Source of the DNA: Actinomycetota bacterium
Lineage (GTDB): Bacteria; Actinomycetota; Thermoleophilia; Solirubrobacterales; Solirubrobacteraceae
NCBI GenBank assembly: GCA_009699245.1
Contig: WLOQ01000006.1
Location: forward strand, 1 to 64,000
Length of the DNA stretch: 64,000 nt
Direction: 5' to 3'
Both the position numbers and the translations under genes were made by a program. The notes below the pieces were generated by a model. The model was not told the origin of the DNA, did not search any database, and saw nothing but the letters and a program-made list of their open reading frames with translations. Shown here piece after piece: positions 30,388 through 40,416 of the stretch. Every line of letters begins with the position of its first letter. The stretch's first letter is position 1.

Positions 30388-31521
30388 TCAGCTCTCCAGG
30401 AAGCGCTGCACCTGCCGCTGGCGCGCCGGCGCTGAGACCGTGAGGCCCGCGCCGCCGTCCGGCAGCGTGACCGTGCCGGTCGGCTTGAGGACGCGCACCG
30501 GTGCATTGCCGCTGGTCGCGATCGTGGCGATGAGCCCGGAGAGGCCCGCGGCGCCCATGTCCGACGTGATCGTGGCCGGCGCGCGCCAGGCGACCATCGG
30601 CCAGTGGAAGAACCCGCGGACCGAGAGGACCTGCGCGCGCATCGCCGAGAGCACCTTCTGCTGGCGGCGCGCCCGCGTGAGGTCGTTCTCGCGCGGGTTG
30701 CAGAGGTTCTCGCGGGTGCGCGACAGCGCGAGCGCCTGCTTGCCGTCGATGTGTGTCGTGCCGGACCGCAGGCGCAGGGTGTAGCCGCCGTTGCGGTAGC
30801 CGCCGTTGATGCGCGAGACGACGCAGCCACCGCTGTAGTCGATGCCGCCCATCGCGTCGATTAGCTGCGGGAAGCGCGCGAAGTCGACGACGATCACGTG
30901 GTCGATGTCGATTCCGAGGTAGTCGCGGACGGTGCGCACAGCGAGCGCGGTGCCGCCGAACGCGTAGGCCGCGTTGATCTTGTTCACGCCGTGTCCGGGG
31001 ATCGGGACGACGGTGTCACGCGGGATCGCGAGCTTGGCGCTGTGGCCGCCCCCCACGCGCAGGAGCTGGATCGAGTCCGAACGGCTCGGCCCGGAGGTCT
31101 GCGCTCCCGGCTCGCGCGTGCCCTTCACGCGCTGGTCGGAGCCGAGCAGGAGCACCGTCGCGGGCGAGACGATCGGGACGCCGGCGGACGTCAGCGCGTC
31201 CTTCGTCGCTCCATCGACGCGGTCCTGGCGCACCTGGGCGCTGAAGAGGAAGAGCAGGCCGGAGAGCGCCACCCAGGCGACGAGGGCGAGCGCCACCCAG
31301 CGCATGAGGCGCAGCACGCCCCGGGGTGTGGGGCGGCGACCCCTGCGCCGCGGCCGCGGCGGCTCCCCAGGCCGCGGCGGCTCACCGTCGTGCGGCGATG
31401 GCTCGCGGGGGCGCGGGTCGACCACGGTCTGCGCGCCGGGGTCGAGCCACGCGGGCCGCGAGCGGCGCACGCGATAGGTGGGGCGGCCCGGGGGCCGCTC
31501 CGGGGGAAGGGCGGAGGACAT
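30388..31521 (-). CDS. LytR-CpsA-Psr (LCP) family cell-wall ligase
   Basis: A 377-residue membrane-anchored protein. A basic Pro/Arg-rich cytoplasmic N-terminus (1-68) precedes one membrane helix (about 69-90, MRWVALALVAWVALSGLLFL). The LCP domain has VLLLGSDQR, SRSDSIQLLRV, IPRDTVVPIPGHGVNKINAA and LALSRTRENL. LCP enzymes transfer polymers such as arabinogalactan or teichoic-acid-like glycans from undecaprenyl carriers to peptidoglycan. It diverges from the ROK kinase gene with only 20 bp between starts. Confidence 0.92.
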   Translation of the reverse strand: MSSALPPERPPGRPTYRVRRSRPAWLDPGAQTVVDPRPREPSPHDGEPPRPGEPPRPRRRGRRPTPRGVLRLMRWVALALVAWVALSGLLFLFSAQVRQDRVDGATKDALTSAGVPIVSPATVLLLGSDQRVKGTREPGAQTSGPSRSDSIQLLRVGGGHSAKLAIPRDTVVPIPGHGVNKINAAYAFGGTALAVRTVRDYLGIDIDHVIVVDFARFPQLIDAMGGIDYSGGCVVSRINGGYRNGGYTLRLRSGTTHIDGKQALALSRTRENLCNPRENDLTRARRQQKVLSAMRAQVLSVRGFFHWPMVAWRAPATITSDMGAAGLSGLIATIATSGNAPVRVLKPTGTVTLPDGGAGLTVSAPARQRQVQRFLES

Positions 31522-35669: not shown

Positions 35670-36503
35670 GTGTCCGACGTCACCCAGCCGAGCCTGCGGC
35701 GGATGCGCGAGCACGGGATCCGGCCCAAGCGCGATCTCGGCCAGAACTTCCTCGTCGACTCGAACATCCTCGGCGTGATCGAGCGACTCGCCGAGCTCGA
35801 CCCGCAGGACGCCGTGCTGGAGATCGGCGGGGGGCTCGGCGTCCTCAGCGAGCACCTCGCGCCGCGCTGCTCGCATCTCCATGTGGTCGAGATCGATCGC
35901 GTGCTCGTCCCGGCACTCGAGGAGGCGCTGGCGCCCTTCGCGAACGTGACGCTCCATGTCGCCGATGCGATGAAGCTCGATCTCGGCGCGCTCGATCCGG
36001 CGCCGACGGCGGTCGTCGCGAACCTCCCGTACGGCATCGCCGCGACCTCGATCCTGCGCACGATCGAGGAGCTGCCCGAGGCCACGCGCTGGGTCGCGAT
36101 GGTCCAGCGCGAGGTCGGCGAGCGCTTCGCTGCAGGGCCCGGCGGCGGCGCGTACGGCGTGCCGTCCGTGCTCGCGCAGATCGCCTGCGAGGTCCAGGTC
36201 GCACGCGCGGTGTCGCGCACCGTCTTCCAGCCGGTCCCGAATGTCGACTCGGTGCTCGTGCGGCTTACGCGCACCGGGCCGGCGGCGTCGCCGCGTCTGC
36301 GCGCGCTCGTGCAGGGCGCCTTCGCGCACCGCCGCAAGGCGCTCGCGCGCTCGCTCGAACACGCCGGCGTGATCCCCGGGCCCGACGTGCGCGGCCGTGC
36401 TCGTGCAGCGCTCGTCGCGATGGGGCATCCCGCTGACGTGCGTGCCGAGCGCCTCGCGCCGACCGAGTTCGTGGACCTTCTCGAGCGGATCGAGGCAGGG
36501 TGA
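35670..36503 (+). CDS. rsmA: 16S rRNA dimethyladenosine transferase RsmA (KsgA)
   Basis: A 277-residue methyltransferase. RPKRDLGQNFLVDSNIL is the family N-terminus; the SAM motif is VLEIGGGLGVLSEHLA and the catalytic motif IV is NLPYGIA. It dimethylates two adjacent adenines in helix 45. The GTG at 35670 has AGGG 6 nt upstream; an in-frame GTG at 35658 overlapping the tatD stop is an alternative. It overlaps ispE by 4 bp. Confidence 0.95.
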   Translation: MSDVTQPSLRRMREHGIRPKRDLGQNFLVDSNILGVIERLAELDPQDAVLEIGGGLGVLSEHLAPRCSHLHVVEIDRVLVPALEEALAPFANVTLHVADAMKLDLGALDPAPTAVVANLPYGIAATSILRTIEELPEATRWVAMVQREVGERFAAGPGGGAYGVPSVLAQIACEVQVARAVSRTVFQPVPNVDSVLVRLTRTGPAASPRLRALVQGAFAHRRKALARSLEHAGVIPGPDVRGRARAALVAMGHPADVRAERLAPTEFVDLLERIEAG

Positions 36504-37393
36504 CGGCGCTGCACGAGGTCGCTCCGGCGAAGATCAACCTCGGGCTGACGCTCGGTCCGACGCGCGCCGACGGGCGCCATGAGCTCGTGACCGTCATGCA
36601 GCCGGTGGCGCTCTGCGACCGCGTGCGGCTCACCCCCGCCGGGCTCGGGGCGGCCGAGGACGAGGTCCATTGTCCCGGCGTCACCGGGGAGAACCTCGCG
36701 ACGGCCGCGCTGCGCGACTTCCGCGCGCGCACCGGGTGGCATGGCGCGGCGGTGCGCATCGACATCGAGAAGCGCATCCCCGTCGCCGCGGGCATGGCCG
36801 GTGGATCGGCGGACGCTGCCGCTGTCCTGCGGCTCGCAGCGCGCGCCGCAGGGGTGCGGGACGACCGGCTGCTGCGCGAGATCGCCGCCGGTCTCGGCGC
36901 CGACGTGCCGGCGCAGGTGCGCCCGCGCCGCTACCTCGCCACCGGCGCGGGCGAGCGGCTGCATGCGCTGCCGGACCCGGCGCCGTTCGGGATCCTCGTC
37001 GTGCGCGCGCCCTTCGGCCTGTCCACGGGGGACGTCTTCCGCGAGGCCGACCGCCTCGGGCTGCCCCGCAGCGGTGCCGCGCTCGAGGCGCGCAGCGCCG
37101 ACCTGGCGGCGGCGCTCGCCGCCGGCTCGCCGCTGGCGCCCGGCGACCTGCTCCTCAACGACCTCGAGCCCGCCGCGGTGTCGCTGCGCCCGGAGCTGCA
37201 GTGGACGCTCGACGAGGTCCGCGGCACGGGAGCCGACCACGCGCTCGTGTGCGGCTCGGGCCCGACGGTGATCGGGCTCTTCGCCGACCTCGAGCTCGCG
37301 CGCTCCGCTGCGGTGGCGCTCAGCGGTCGCGAGCCGCGGCCCGTCGCCGTCGAGCCCTGGTACCCCTTCTTCATGCCGGACCTCACGCCATGA
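36500..37393 (+). CDS. ispE: 4-diphosphocytidyl-2-C-methyl-D-erythritol kinase
   Basis: A 297-residue GHMP kinase of the MEP pathway for isoprenoids. It begins VAPAKINLGLTL; the ATP loop is PVAAGMAGGSADAAAVLRL; the C-terminal motif is ALVCGSGPTVIGLF. GTG start overlapping the rsmA stop. The rsmA-ispE order is conserved in actinobacteria. The next gene overlaps it and encodes a likely isoprenoid-lipid-recycling protein. Confidence 0.95.
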   Translation: MTALHEVAPAKINLGLTLGPTRADGRHELVTVMQPVALCDRVRLTPAGLGAAEDEVHCPGVTGENLATAALRDFRARTGWHGAAVRIDIEKRIPVAAGMAGGSADAAAVLRLAARAAGVRDDRLLREIAAGLGADVPAQVRPRRYLATGAGERLHALPDPAPFGILVVRAPFGLSTGDVFREADRLGLPRSGAALEARSADLAAALAAGSPLAPGDLLLNDLEPAAVSLRPELQWTLDEVRGTGADHALVCGSGPTVIGLFADLELARSAAVALSGREPRPVAVEPWYPFFMPDLTP

Positions 37394-38928
37394 AGCTCTG
37401 GGCGTATGTCGTCGCCGCGCTGATCGCCGGGGCGCTCTTCAGGCGCCGGCGGCATCTCGAGCCGCCGATGCTCGTCGGCGGCGTCCTCGCGATCGTGCTC
37501 CTCGCCGTCTACGGCACCGGCGCGGTGCATCTGCCGACCCTCGAGGAGGTGCTCACGCACGTCGGGTCGACCCTCGGCGCATGGACGTACCTCCTCGTCG
37601 CCGTCTTCGCCTTCCTGGAGACCGGGGCCTTCATCGGGCTGATCGCCCCGGGGGAGACGGCGATGATCGTCGGCGGCGTCGTCGCCGGGCAGGGCGAGAT
37701 CTCGGTGATCACGCTGATCGCGATCACCTGGTTCGCCGCGGTGCTGGGCGACTGCGCCAGTTACGAGCTCGGACGGCGCCTCGGTCGCGACTTCCTCGTG
37801 CGGCATGGGTCGCGCTTTCAGATCACGCCCGAGCGCCTCGAGCGCGTCGAGACATTCTTCCAGGCGCACGGCGGGAAGGCGATCTTCATCGGGCGCTTCG
37901 TCGGCCTCGTGCGTGCGGTCGCGCCGTTCCTCGCCGGGTCCGGCCGCATGCCGTTCCGGCGCTTCCTGCCCTACGACGTGCTCGGCGCCGGGCTCTGGTC
38001 GACGACGTTCATCCTCATCGGCTACGTCTTCTGGCAGAGCTTCGATCAGGTCCTGAAGATCGCCAAGCAGGGCGCGATCGGCCTCGGGGTCGCGATCTCG
38101 GTCGTCGTCGGGATCGTGCTCCTCGTCCGCGTGCTCGCCGATGACGAGCGCCGCCACGCGCTCGAGGCCCGCATCATGGCCGCGCTCGATCGGCCGGGCC
38201 TGCGCGTCCTCCAGCCGGTCGTCCGCTGGGCGAAGGGGCCCGCGCGGTTCTTCATCCAGCGGCTCACGCCCGGACAGCTCGGCCTTGAGCTGACGGCGCT
38301 GCTCGCGGTCGTCGCGGTCGGCTCCTTCGGGTACATCGGAAACTGGCTCGTCATCAGGAGCCGGGGCTATGGGTCGCTCGACGCGACGGTGCACCGCTGG
38401 GCGGTGGATCTGGCCGATGCGACGGCGACGGACATCGCCCGGGTCCTCACCTGGCTCGGCTCGCCCTGGATCATGGAGACGCTCTGCGTGCTTGTCGCGA
38501 TTGCGCTGCTCACACGCCGGCGCGTGCTCGAGGCCGTGGTCGTCGCCGGTGGCATGGCGCTCACGACCGGCCTCGTGGTGCTCACCAAAGGGCTCGTGGA
38601 TCGCCCGCGTCCGTCGGACGCGCTGGTCGAGGCGGGCACCTCCTCCTTCCCCTCAGGCCACGCCGCATACGCCATGGCCTGGGTCGTCCTCGCGATCGTC
38701 GCGGTGCGTGTCGTGCCGGCGCTGCGCGGGCGCTGGTGGCTCGTCGTCGCCGGAATCCTCGTGGCGCTCGTCGTCGGTCTCACGCGGCTCTATCTGCGCG
38801 CACACTGGGCTGCAGACGTGTTCGGCGGCTGGGGCGTGGCTGCGATGAGCTTCTCGATCGTCGCGATCGTGGCGCTGATCGTCGCCTTCGTGCGCCAGAA
38901 TGGATCCGCCGGATCCCCGCCGCCATGA
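37390..38928 (+). CDS. DedA-PAP2 fusion: membrane protein with lipid-phosphatase domain
   Basis: A 512-residue protein. Residues 50-250 are a DedA/SNARE-associated domain with FLETGAFIGLIAPGET and FIGRFVGLVRAVAPFLAGSG. Residues 300-505 are a PAP2 phosphatase domain with all three motifs: K400-x6-R407-P408, PSGH (421-424) and R466-x5-H472-x3-D476. DedA proteins include undecaprenyl-phosphate flippases and PAP2 includes undecaprenyl-pyrophosphate phosphatases, so the fusion probably dephosphorylates and recycles the carrier lipid (inference). Its ATG overlaps the ispE stop. Confidence 0.88.
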   Translation: MKLWAYVVAALIAGALFRRRRHLEPPMLVGGVLAIVLLAVYGTGAVHLPTLEEVLTHVGSTLGAWTYLLVAVFAFLETGAFIGLIAPGETAMIVGGVVAGQGEISVITLIAITWFAAVLGDCASYELGRRLGRDFLVRHGSRFQITPERLERVETFFQAHGGKAIFIGRFVGLVRAVAPFLAGSGRMPFRRFLPYDVLGAGLWSTTFILIGYVFWQSFDQVLKIAKQGAIGLGVAISVVVGIVLLVRVLADDERRHALEARIMAALDRPGLRVLQPVVRWAKGPARFFIQRLTPGQLGLELTALLAVVAVGSFGYIGNWLVIRSRGYGSLDATVHRWAVDLADATATDIARVLTWLGSPWIMETLCVLVAIALLTRRRVLEAVVVAGGMALTTGLVVLTKGLVDRPRPSDALVEAGTSSFPSGHAAYAMAWVVLAIVAVRVVPALRGRWWLVVAGILVALVVGLTRLYLRAHWAADVFGGWGVAAMSFSIVAIVALIVAFVRQNGSAGSPPP

Positions 38929-39140
38929 GTAACGACTCGATCATCGTCCTCGTCGCCGCCTGCAGCGCGGTCTTCATCGTCGCTGCATGGGTCGGCCTGC
39001 TCGCCGTCCCCGCGTGGCAGGCCTACTCACGCACCTGGGAGCGGCTCGCGGCGATCTTCCTGTCGCTCTACACCGTCGCAGCCTGCATGCTGGTGGGCGT
39101 CGCCATGGGCGCGGCGTTCGTCTGGTTCTTCGCGGACTGA
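38925..39140 (+). CDS. Small two-helix membrane protein
   Basis: A 71-residue protein with two membrane helices (about 5-30 and 42-69). Its ATG overlaps the stop of the DedA-PAP2 gene by 4 bp, so it is the last gene of the metG operon and may be an accessory subunit. No recognisable family. Confidence 0.65.
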   Translation: MSNDSIIVLVAACSAVFIVAAWVGLLAVPAWQAYSRTWERLAAIFLSLYTVAACMLVGVAMGAAFVWFFAD

Positions 39141-39189: not shown

Positions 39190-40416
39190 ATGTCGACGTC
39201 GGCGCACGGCGCCCGCGAACTGGACCTCGGGGCGTTCGACGCCATCACTGCCGCCGTCGGCTCCGGTGCAGGACTTCCCGAGGTGGTTCGCGCCGCCGCA
39301 CGAGCACTCGATGCCAGCATCGTGGTGAGCGACCGGGCCGGCAACGTGCTCGCCGTCTCCGTGGCGTCGCCGGCAGATGAGCAGGCGATCCTGACCGGCC
39401 GCGAGGGTGTGCAGCACGTCGAGCTGCGCATCGCCGACCAGCCGGTCGGGCTGCTGCGCCTGCGCGGGCGCGAGGAGCCGGACCCGCTCGCACTGCGTCT
39501 TGTGACGACGATCGTCGCTGCCGAAGTCGAGCGCCTCCGCGCGCCCGAGACGGCGTCGGCGGAGGCCGCCGGGGAGGTGCTCCGCGCGATCCTGCGCCGC
39601 GAGCTCAGCGGGCCCGCCGTGGCGGTGGCCGCTGCTGAGGCGGGGCTGACGCTCGGAGCGACACCGAGCATGCTCGTCGTGCGCGTCCACGCGCACGTCC
39701 CGGGCGATGACGGCCGCCGCGCTCGGGTCACGGCACTCGTCGAGCGCGGTGCACGCGCCGTCGTCGCACAGGCCGTCGCGGCTCCGAGCGAGCGTCAGGA
39801 GCTCCCGGGCGAGGAACTGCTCGTGCTGCTCCCGGATGGTGGGGAGGACGCCGCCGACCGCGCGGCACAGAGCGTCCATCGCGAGCTGCGTGCCGGACTC
39901 GCCGGCCATTCCTGCACGATCGGCCGCAGCCGGCCGTGCGCGGAGCCCGGCGACCTCCCGCGCGCGGCGGGCGAGGCGCTGCTCGCGGCGAACGTCGCCG
40001 AAGGCGACGCCGAGCGCCCGATCCTCGCGTTCGAGGAGACCGGGGCGTATCGCCTCCTGCTGCCCGCGATGGCCGAGGATCCCGCAGAGCTCCAGCGCTT
40101 CTATGCCGAGACGGTCGAGCCGCTCGTCGCCTACGATGAGCAGTACGAGACCGACCTCGTCACGACCGTCGCGACGTTTCTCGACGCCGACGGCAACGTC
40201 GCCGGCACGGCCCAGCGACTCTTCACGCACCGTCACACGGTCCGGTATCGCCTCGAGCGCGTGCGCGAGCTCTCCGGCCTCGACGTGGGCTCCACGGACG
40301 GGCGCGAGAAGCTCAGCCTCGGGCTCAAGGCCATGCGCGTCCTCGGCATCGCGCATCGTGGGGGTCCGGCCACCGAGGCCGGGGCCGCTGCGGGCCGCGT
40401 GCCGCGCGGGCGCTGA
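39190..40416 (+). CDS. PucR/CdaR-family transcriptional regulator
   Basis: A 408-residue regulator. The N-terminal third is GAF-like (LDASIVVSDRAGNVLAVSVA); the middle is the GGDEF-like CdaR domain; the C-terminal HTH_30 has FLDADGNVAGTAQRLFTHRH followed by TVRYRLERV. The family controls purine, sugar-diacid or amino-acid catabolism, but no target operon is adjacent. Leaderless promoter at 39178. Confidence 0.87.
   Translation: MSTSAHGARELDLGAFDAITAAVGSGAGLPEVVRAAARALDASIVVSDRAGNVLAVSVASPADEQAILTGREGVQHVELRIADQPVGLLRLRGREEPDPLALRLVTTIVAAEVERLRAPETASAEAAGEVLRAILRRELSGPAVAVAAAEAGLTLGATPSMLVVRVHAHVPGDDGRRARVTALVERGARAVVAQAVAAPSERQELPGEELLVLLPDGGEDAADRAAQSVHRELRAGLAGHSCTIGRSRPCAEPGDLPRAAGEALLAANVAEGDAERPILAFEETGAYRLLLPAMAEDPAELQRFYAETVEPLVAYDEQYETDLVTTVATFLDADGNVAGTAQRLFTHRHTVRYRLERVRELSGLDVGSTDGREKLSLGLKAMRVLGIAHRGGPATEAGAAAGRVPRGR

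What the first reader, a model, noticed from the sequence alone, without database searches (positions are those of the whole stretch)
37390..38928. DedA-PAP2 fusion coupled to ispE: one-protein carrier-lipid recycling?
DedA-family proteins include undecaprenyl-phosphate flippases, and PAP2 proteins include undecaprenyl-pyrophosphate phosphatases. Here both are complete in one 512-residue chain, with intact PAP2 catalytic motifs, and the gene overlaps ispE of the isoprenoid pathway. The fusion would dephosphorylate the pyrophosphate outside and return the monophosphate inside. A 71-residue two-helix protein is coupled behind it. An LCP ligase that releases carrier lipid is encoded nearby.
Basis: partly seen in the sequence, partly recalled or inferred. 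Interest (0 to 1): 0.7.

Follow-up and report, generated by a model that had tools for sequence, protein, structure and literature searches.

The report
DedA-PAP2 fusion membrane protein
A bacterial membrane protein joins a likely lipid transporter to a likely lipid phosphatase in one chain; this fusion and the idea that it recycles the cell-wall carrier lipid were already published, and here the genome also carries separate enzymes for both steps, so it is at most an extra recycler.

Summary
Window 37390-38928 (+) encodes one 512-residue chain with a DedA/VTT domain (87-212) and a PAP2 domain (383-491), all signature and catalytic residues intact, overlapping ispE and a 71-residue gene by ATGA. 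The architecture is not new: NCBI names it "bifunctional DedA family/phosphatase PAP2 family protein", and Sit 2022 and Todor 2023 reported it, Todor with the same recycling idea. The "one-protein" claim fails here: the 1.95-Mb genome (99.4% complete) also has a canonical UppP, a second UppP coupled to an UptA-like DedA, and another PAP2. In Solirubrobacterales the block ksgA-ispE-fusion-small-pucR is old (89 of 95 loci), but the small gene stays when the fusion is lost, so it is no dedicated partner. One result looks new: across 102 homologues eight DedA residues never vary, while the PAP2 nucleophile was lost at least four times in full-length fusions, including all five Patulibacter examined, without faster divergence of that half. 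The substrate is unknown: the nearest solved relative is B. subtilis PgpB, and the one tested fusion (P. aeruginosa PA4011) did not replace a carrier-lipid flippase.

The parts
37390..38928 (+). DedA-PAP2 fusion gene, 512 aa
37648..38025 (+). DedA/VTT domain (residues 87-212); the signature starts at E77 (37618)
   Evidence: PF09335; signature residues invariant in 102 of 102 homologues
38536..38862 (+). PAP2 domain (residues 383-491) with intact K/R/H/R/H/D set
   Evidence: PF01569; motifs; bsPgpB fold Z 24.4
36500..37393 (+). ispE, overlaps the fusion by 4 nt (ATGA)
Evidence: synteny.
38925..39140 (+). 71-aa two-helix protein, overlaps the fusion by 4 nt; stays with ispE-pucR when the fusion is absent
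   Evidence: (no family above cut-off)
39190..40416 (+). PucR-type regulator (HTH_30), the conserved downstream neighbour of the block
30388..31521 (-). LCP (LytR_cpsA_psr) gene, opposite strand, not in the operon
   Evidence: PF03816

Best explanation
This is a member of the known bifunctional DedA/PAP2 membrane proteins. The likely working is as follows. The six-helix PAP2 half has its active site on the outer face and removes a phosphate from a polyprenyl or phospholipid (pyro)phosphate. The DedA half takes the resulting outward-facing lipid monophosphate and returns it to the inner leaflet. In this organism it would be an accessory or conditional carrier-lipid recycler beside the separate UppP and the DedA-UppP gene pair. 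The DedA half is the constant function. The PAP2 half is a helper that can be lost, or kept as a catalytically dead fold. Shown here: architecture, intact motifs, synteny, redundancy in the genome, repeated PAP2 decay. Inferred: substrate, coupling, direction of flipping.
For: Both domains are above curated cut-offs with complete catalytic sets. The AlphaFold2 model is confident (pLDDT 87, pTM 0.76) and its PAP2 half matches B. subtilis PgpB (5jki, Z 24.4, 197 residues, rmsd 2.4 A). Helix order and the charge-rich linker fit an inside N- and C-terminus of the PAP2 half with all catalytic residues on the outer side (inference). Eight DedA residues, including the arginine positions that correspond to residues reported as essential in E. 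coli and B. subtilis DedA proteins (PMC10127716; the residue correspondence is by motif spacing, from general knowledge), are invariant in 102 of 102 homologues. The same order pairs a second DedA with UppP as neighbouring genes in 46 of 48 genomes checked, so DedA is coupled with a lipid-pyrophosphate phosphatase twice over. DedA and DUF368 proteins are published C55-P translocases, and DedA-PAP2 and DUF368-PAP2 fusions are published (PMC9876793).
Against: No activity is known for any protein of this clade. PA4011, a DedA-PAP2 fusion, did not rescue a C55-P flippase mutant, and its deletion did not worsen one. Neither half reaches an NCBIfam cut-off for UptA (71.3 of 250 bits) or for any C55-PP phosphatase. 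The PAP2 nucleophile is lost in nine complete homologues. Several genera do without the fusion.
Confidence: 0.45

Rival explanations
1. The fusion acts on other membrane lipids: the PAP2 half is the missing phosphatidylglycerol-phosphate (or phosphatidate) phosphatase, and the DedA half moves a phospholipid or its product. Carrier-lipid recycling is left to UppP and the UptA-like DedA.
For: The nearest solved sequence and fold is the PGP phosphatase of B. subtilis, which is only weakly active on C55-PP. PgpA (PF04608) is absent from all 61 genomes although the control finds it in E. coli and B. subtilis. The separate DedA, not the fusion, is UptA-like (149.9 against 71.3 bits). Loss of PA4011/papP affects envelope integrity rather than C55-P flipping.
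Against: PAP2 fold and motifs do not tell substrates apart: LpxE of A. aeolicus, of the same fold, works on lipid A, PGP and C55-PP. Genomes without the fusion, or with a dead PAP2 half, would need yet another PGP phosphatase; other phosphatase families such as PgpC were not searched.
Confidence: 0.25
2. The protein is essentially a DedA transporter; the PAP2 half is mainly a structural or lipid-binding module whose catalysis is dispensable.
For: DedA signature invariant in 102 of 102, against loss of the PAP2 nucleophile H472 (D, Y, G, N or A) in 9 of 101 scorable proteins, four separate changes on the tree. All five Patulibacter genomes sampled carry the dead form, confirmed in the isolate P. 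medicamentivorans I11, yet their PAP2 half diverges no faster relative to DedA than in other genera (ratio 2.10 against 1.14-2.90) and is modelled with the PgpB fold (Z 22.9). One genome keeps only the DedA half at the locus.
Against: 92 of 101, including the window protein, keep the nucleophile. One genome keeps only an intact PAP2 at the locus.
Confidence: 0.2
3. A rival to the ispE argument only, compatible with the others: ispE is next to the fusion only because both sit in an ancient housekeeping cluster (metG-tatD-ksgA-ispE ... glmU-prs-rplY), so the isoprenoid link carries no functional meaning.
For: The neighbours are general housekeeping genes. The 71-aa gene and pucR stay beside ispE when the fusion is lost. 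Six of 95 loci, five of them in one genus (g39, Conexibacter), carry the fusion away from ispE.
Against: The adjacency is kept in 89 of 95 loci over four families.
Confidence: 0.6

Closest known systems
Bifunctional DedA family/phosphatase PAP2 family proteins (PGAP name; for example WP_083684261.1 of Massilia putida; PA4011/PapP of Pseudomonas aeruginosa)
   Same: N-terminal DedA and C-terminal PAP2 in one chain; the Massilia protein has the same intact DedA and PAP2 residues at 33% identity.
   Different: The window protein belongs to a Solirubrobacterales clade with a fixed place after ispE. PA4011 is 437 aa; its sequence was not compared here.
UptA / DedA C55-P translocases (COG0586)
   Same: VTT domain with the acidic and arginine signature positions.
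   Different: Scores 71.3 bits against the UptA model (cut-off 250); its best DedA model is PRK10847 (102.7). The stand-alone DedA of the same genome is closer to UptA (149.9 bits).
B. subtilis PgpB (YodM, 5jki) type PAP2 lipid phosphatases
   Same: Fold (Z 24.4), motifs and sequence (phmmer E 1.2e-12).
   Different: Fused to DedA; substrate not tested.
DUF368-PAP2, PAP2-DUF368 and DUF368-BacA fusions (Sit et al. 2022)
   Same: Flippase-type domain joined to a phosphatase domain.
   Different: A different flippase family; DUF368 is absent from this genome.

Membership tests
Bifunctional DedA/PAP2 fusion proteins | DedA/VTT domain and PAP2 domain, both above cut-off, in one open frame | tested here: met
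   full-length homologues
Bifunctional DedA/PAP2 fusion proteins | Intact DedA signature and PAP2 catalytic set | tested here: met
   EPGEGDRR and KRPSGHRHD
Bifunctional DedA/PAP2 fusion proteins | Both activities (flipping and dephosphorylation) in one protein | not testable with these tools
   needs biochemistry; the nearest tested fusion, PA4011, gave no flippase phenotype
UptA undecaprenyl phosphate transporter (NCBIfam equivalogs NF052604, NF052605) | score above the curated cut-off | tested here: not met
   71.3 of 250 and 57.9 of 300 bits
PAP2-type phosphatases SepP, YbjG-type (PRK11837) and PgpB (PRK10699) | score above the curated equivalog cut-off | tested here: not met
   33.6 of 250, 18.5 of 229 and 19.1 of 261 bits for the PAP2 half
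PAP2 lipid phosphatase superfamily | KX6RP - PSGH - SRX5HX3D motifs and six-helix fold | tested here: met
   T465 stands in place of S; motif definition from PMC6581854
Sole carrier-lipid recycling system of the cell | genome lacks separate UppP and separate DedA/DUF368 | tested here: not met
   two UppP, one stand-alone DedA and a further PAP2 present; no DUF368

The most novel reading that the evidence does not exclude
In this clade the PAP2 half of a DedA flippase has repeatedly turned from enzyme into a retained, catalytically dead module (fixed in the Patulibacter sampled). That would make it a pseudophosphatase-flippase in which the dead phosphatase fold loads, senses or gates the lipid for the DedA half.
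Probability: 0.25. Interest if true: 0.55.

Novelty: new member of a known kind. Interest (0 to 1): 0.33.

Why it matters
Return of undecaprenyl phosphate across the membrane was unexplained until 2022, and whether DedA-PAP2 fusions couple dephosphorylation to flipping is still open. The Solirubrobacterales series gives a natural set to test it: intact fusions, fusions with a dead phosphatase, and the same locus with only one half or neither.

Tried and rejected
Dedicated link of the 71-aa protein to the fusion: rejected, because it stays beside ispE in five fusion-less loci and does not follow the fusion in Conexibacter. Operon link with LCP: rejected, opposite strand and about 6 kb away. UppP replacement: rejected, all 39 good-quality relatives have UppP. 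Counting H424 changes as inactivation: not used alone, since A. aeolicus LpxE lacks that histidine and is active; the count rests on H472. L022 was flagged only because its contig ends inside the gene. No solved DedA structure was found by phmmer, Foldseek or VIA-align, but the DedA half was not folded and searched alone, so no claim is made. A search for papers on a DedA structure found nothing useful.

Full report
What is there. The open frame 37390-38928 (+) gives one chain of 512 residues. Pfam places a VTT (DedA) domain at 87-212 and a PAP2 domain at 383-491, both well above the curated cut-offs. The three PAP2 motifs (K400-x6-R407-P, P-S-G-H424, T-R466-x5-H472-x3-D476) and the DedA signature (E77, PGE 87-89, GD 120-121, R169 and R175) are complete. 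The frame shares ATGA with the upstream frame (ispE, ends 37393) and with a 71-aa frame behind it (starts 38925). An AlphaFold2 model built on 49 sequences is confident (pLDDT 87, pTM 0.76). Its C-terminal half superposes on B. subtilis PgpB (5jki, Z 24.4, 197 residues, 2.4 A), which is also the only solved chain found by sequence (E 1.2e-12). The helix order and the basic linker fit a PAP2 half with both ends inside and the active site outside (inference).

Where it occurs. The window lies in a 1.95-Mb, 99.4% complete genome close to freshwater Solirubrobacterales (inferred from the titles of its nearest relatives). Full-length homologues with 40-79% identity occur through four families of the order, and more distant fusions (31-40%) elsewhere in the phylum. 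NCBI's annotation already names such proteins "bifunctional DedA family/phosphatase PAP2 family protein" in Massilia, Rhizobium and Agrobacterium.

Neighbourhood. The order ksgA-ispE-fusion-71aa-pucR is old: of 95 fusion loci with enough flank, 89 have ispE directly upstream and 89 the small gene directly downstream (details). The rest of the cluster is housekeeping: metG and tatD in front; tRNA-Gln, glmU, prs and L25 behind (gene names partly from general knowledge of this actinobacterial cluster). Five genomes (G017, G022, G029, G031, G049) lack the fusion at this place, yet the small gene and pucR still follow ispE. One (G036) has only a 309-aa DedA half there, and one (G032) only a 217-aa PAP2 half with intact motifs. 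So the small protein belongs to the ispE block, not to the fusion, and the ispE overlap is weak evidence for a carrier-lipid pathway link. The LCP gene is about 6 kb away on the other strand.

Is it the cell's one recycling protein? No. The genome holds a canonical UppP with both catalytic motifs. It also holds a second UppP overlapping a stand-alone DedA and a 188-aa PAP2 beside a murB-like frame (that name from general knowledge). There is no DUF368. Against NCBIfam models the stand-alone DedA is the UptA-like one (149.9 bits, itself below the cut-off of 250), while the fusion scores 71.3 for UptA and 102.7 for the PRK10847 DedA model. In 46 of 48 genomes checked the second UppP lies within 300 nt of a DedA gene. 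UppP is present in all 39 good-quality relatives. The order therefore has two DedA-phosphatase pairings, one fused and one as neighbouring genes, beside a separate UppP.

A new asymmetry between the two halves. In 102 homologues of at least 430 residues the eight DedA residues are invariant. The presumed PAP2 nucleophile (H472 here; the E. coli PgpB equivalent, H207, is the residue mutated in structure 8bm3) is replaced in nine complete proteins (L022, a tenth flagged there, ends with its contig). On a tree of the DedA half and linker alone these are four separate changes. One covers all five Patulibacter genomes sampled (the genus is identified by the matching contig of P. medicamentivorans I11, L217) and is confirmed in that isolate, where K, R, both H and the second R are all altered. 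This dead half diverges no faster, relative to DedA, than intact halves in other genera (ratio 2.10; others 1.14-2.90), and is still modelled with the PgpB fold (Z 22.9; the model's alignment is dominated by intact relatives). The DedA function is thus the constant one, and the PAP2 half can be kept for something other than catalysis. The case is not the window's own, whose PAP2 is intact. One of the four changes (L021) rests on a single metagenome-assembled genome.

What is already known. Sit et al. 2022 (PMC9876793) reported many DedA-PAP2 architectures and used them as a hint to C55-P transport. The only tested fusion found in the literature is PA4011 of P. aeruginosa: its deletion lowers the emergence of colistin resistance, but it neither rescues nor worsens the C55-P flippase mutant, and the authors conclude it is likely not involved in flip-back (PMC12893004). 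As papP it supports envelope integrity under polymyxin (PMC7916210). The substrate of the PAP2 half cannot be read from fold or motif: the same fold works on PGP, C55-PP or lipid A (PMC6581854). PgpA is missing from all 61 genomes, so PGP is a live alternative.

Verdict. A well-read observation of a known architecture; a good but already published hypothesis; overstated as a one-protein system. Its value lies in the natural series of intact, half-lost and catalytically dead fusions at one conserved locus.

Noticed in passing
L083:3209-4670 (G000:C1, about 110209-111670): A stand-alone UptA-like DedA overlaps a divergent UppP gene, followed by a purM-like gene; the DedA-UppP pairing is conserved through the order (46 of 48 genomes).
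   Followed up: partly
Patulibacter loci L060, L119, L120, L128, L129, L217: The PAP2 half of the DedA-PAP2 fusion is catalytically dead in all five genomes sampled but kept at full length.
   Followed up: yes
genera g2, g4, g7, g14, g17, g40 and g30: Genera without the full fusion have as best UppP a different, longer type (E 1e-62 to 1e-74) instead of the usual one (1e-77 or better). Probably confounded by phylogeny.
   Followed up: no
61 genomes of the order: No PgpA anywhere, so the phosphatidylglycerol-phosphate phosphatase of this order is unassigned.
   Followed up: no
L152, L157, L160, L181: Contigs titled 'MAG: Bifidobacterium breve' carry Solirubrobacterales genes; the organism label of these records looks wrong.
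   Followed up: no
window 38925-39140: The 71-aa two-helix membrane protein between ispE (or the fusion) and pucR is a conserved family of the order with no match above a Pfam or NCBIfam cut-off.
   Followed up: partly
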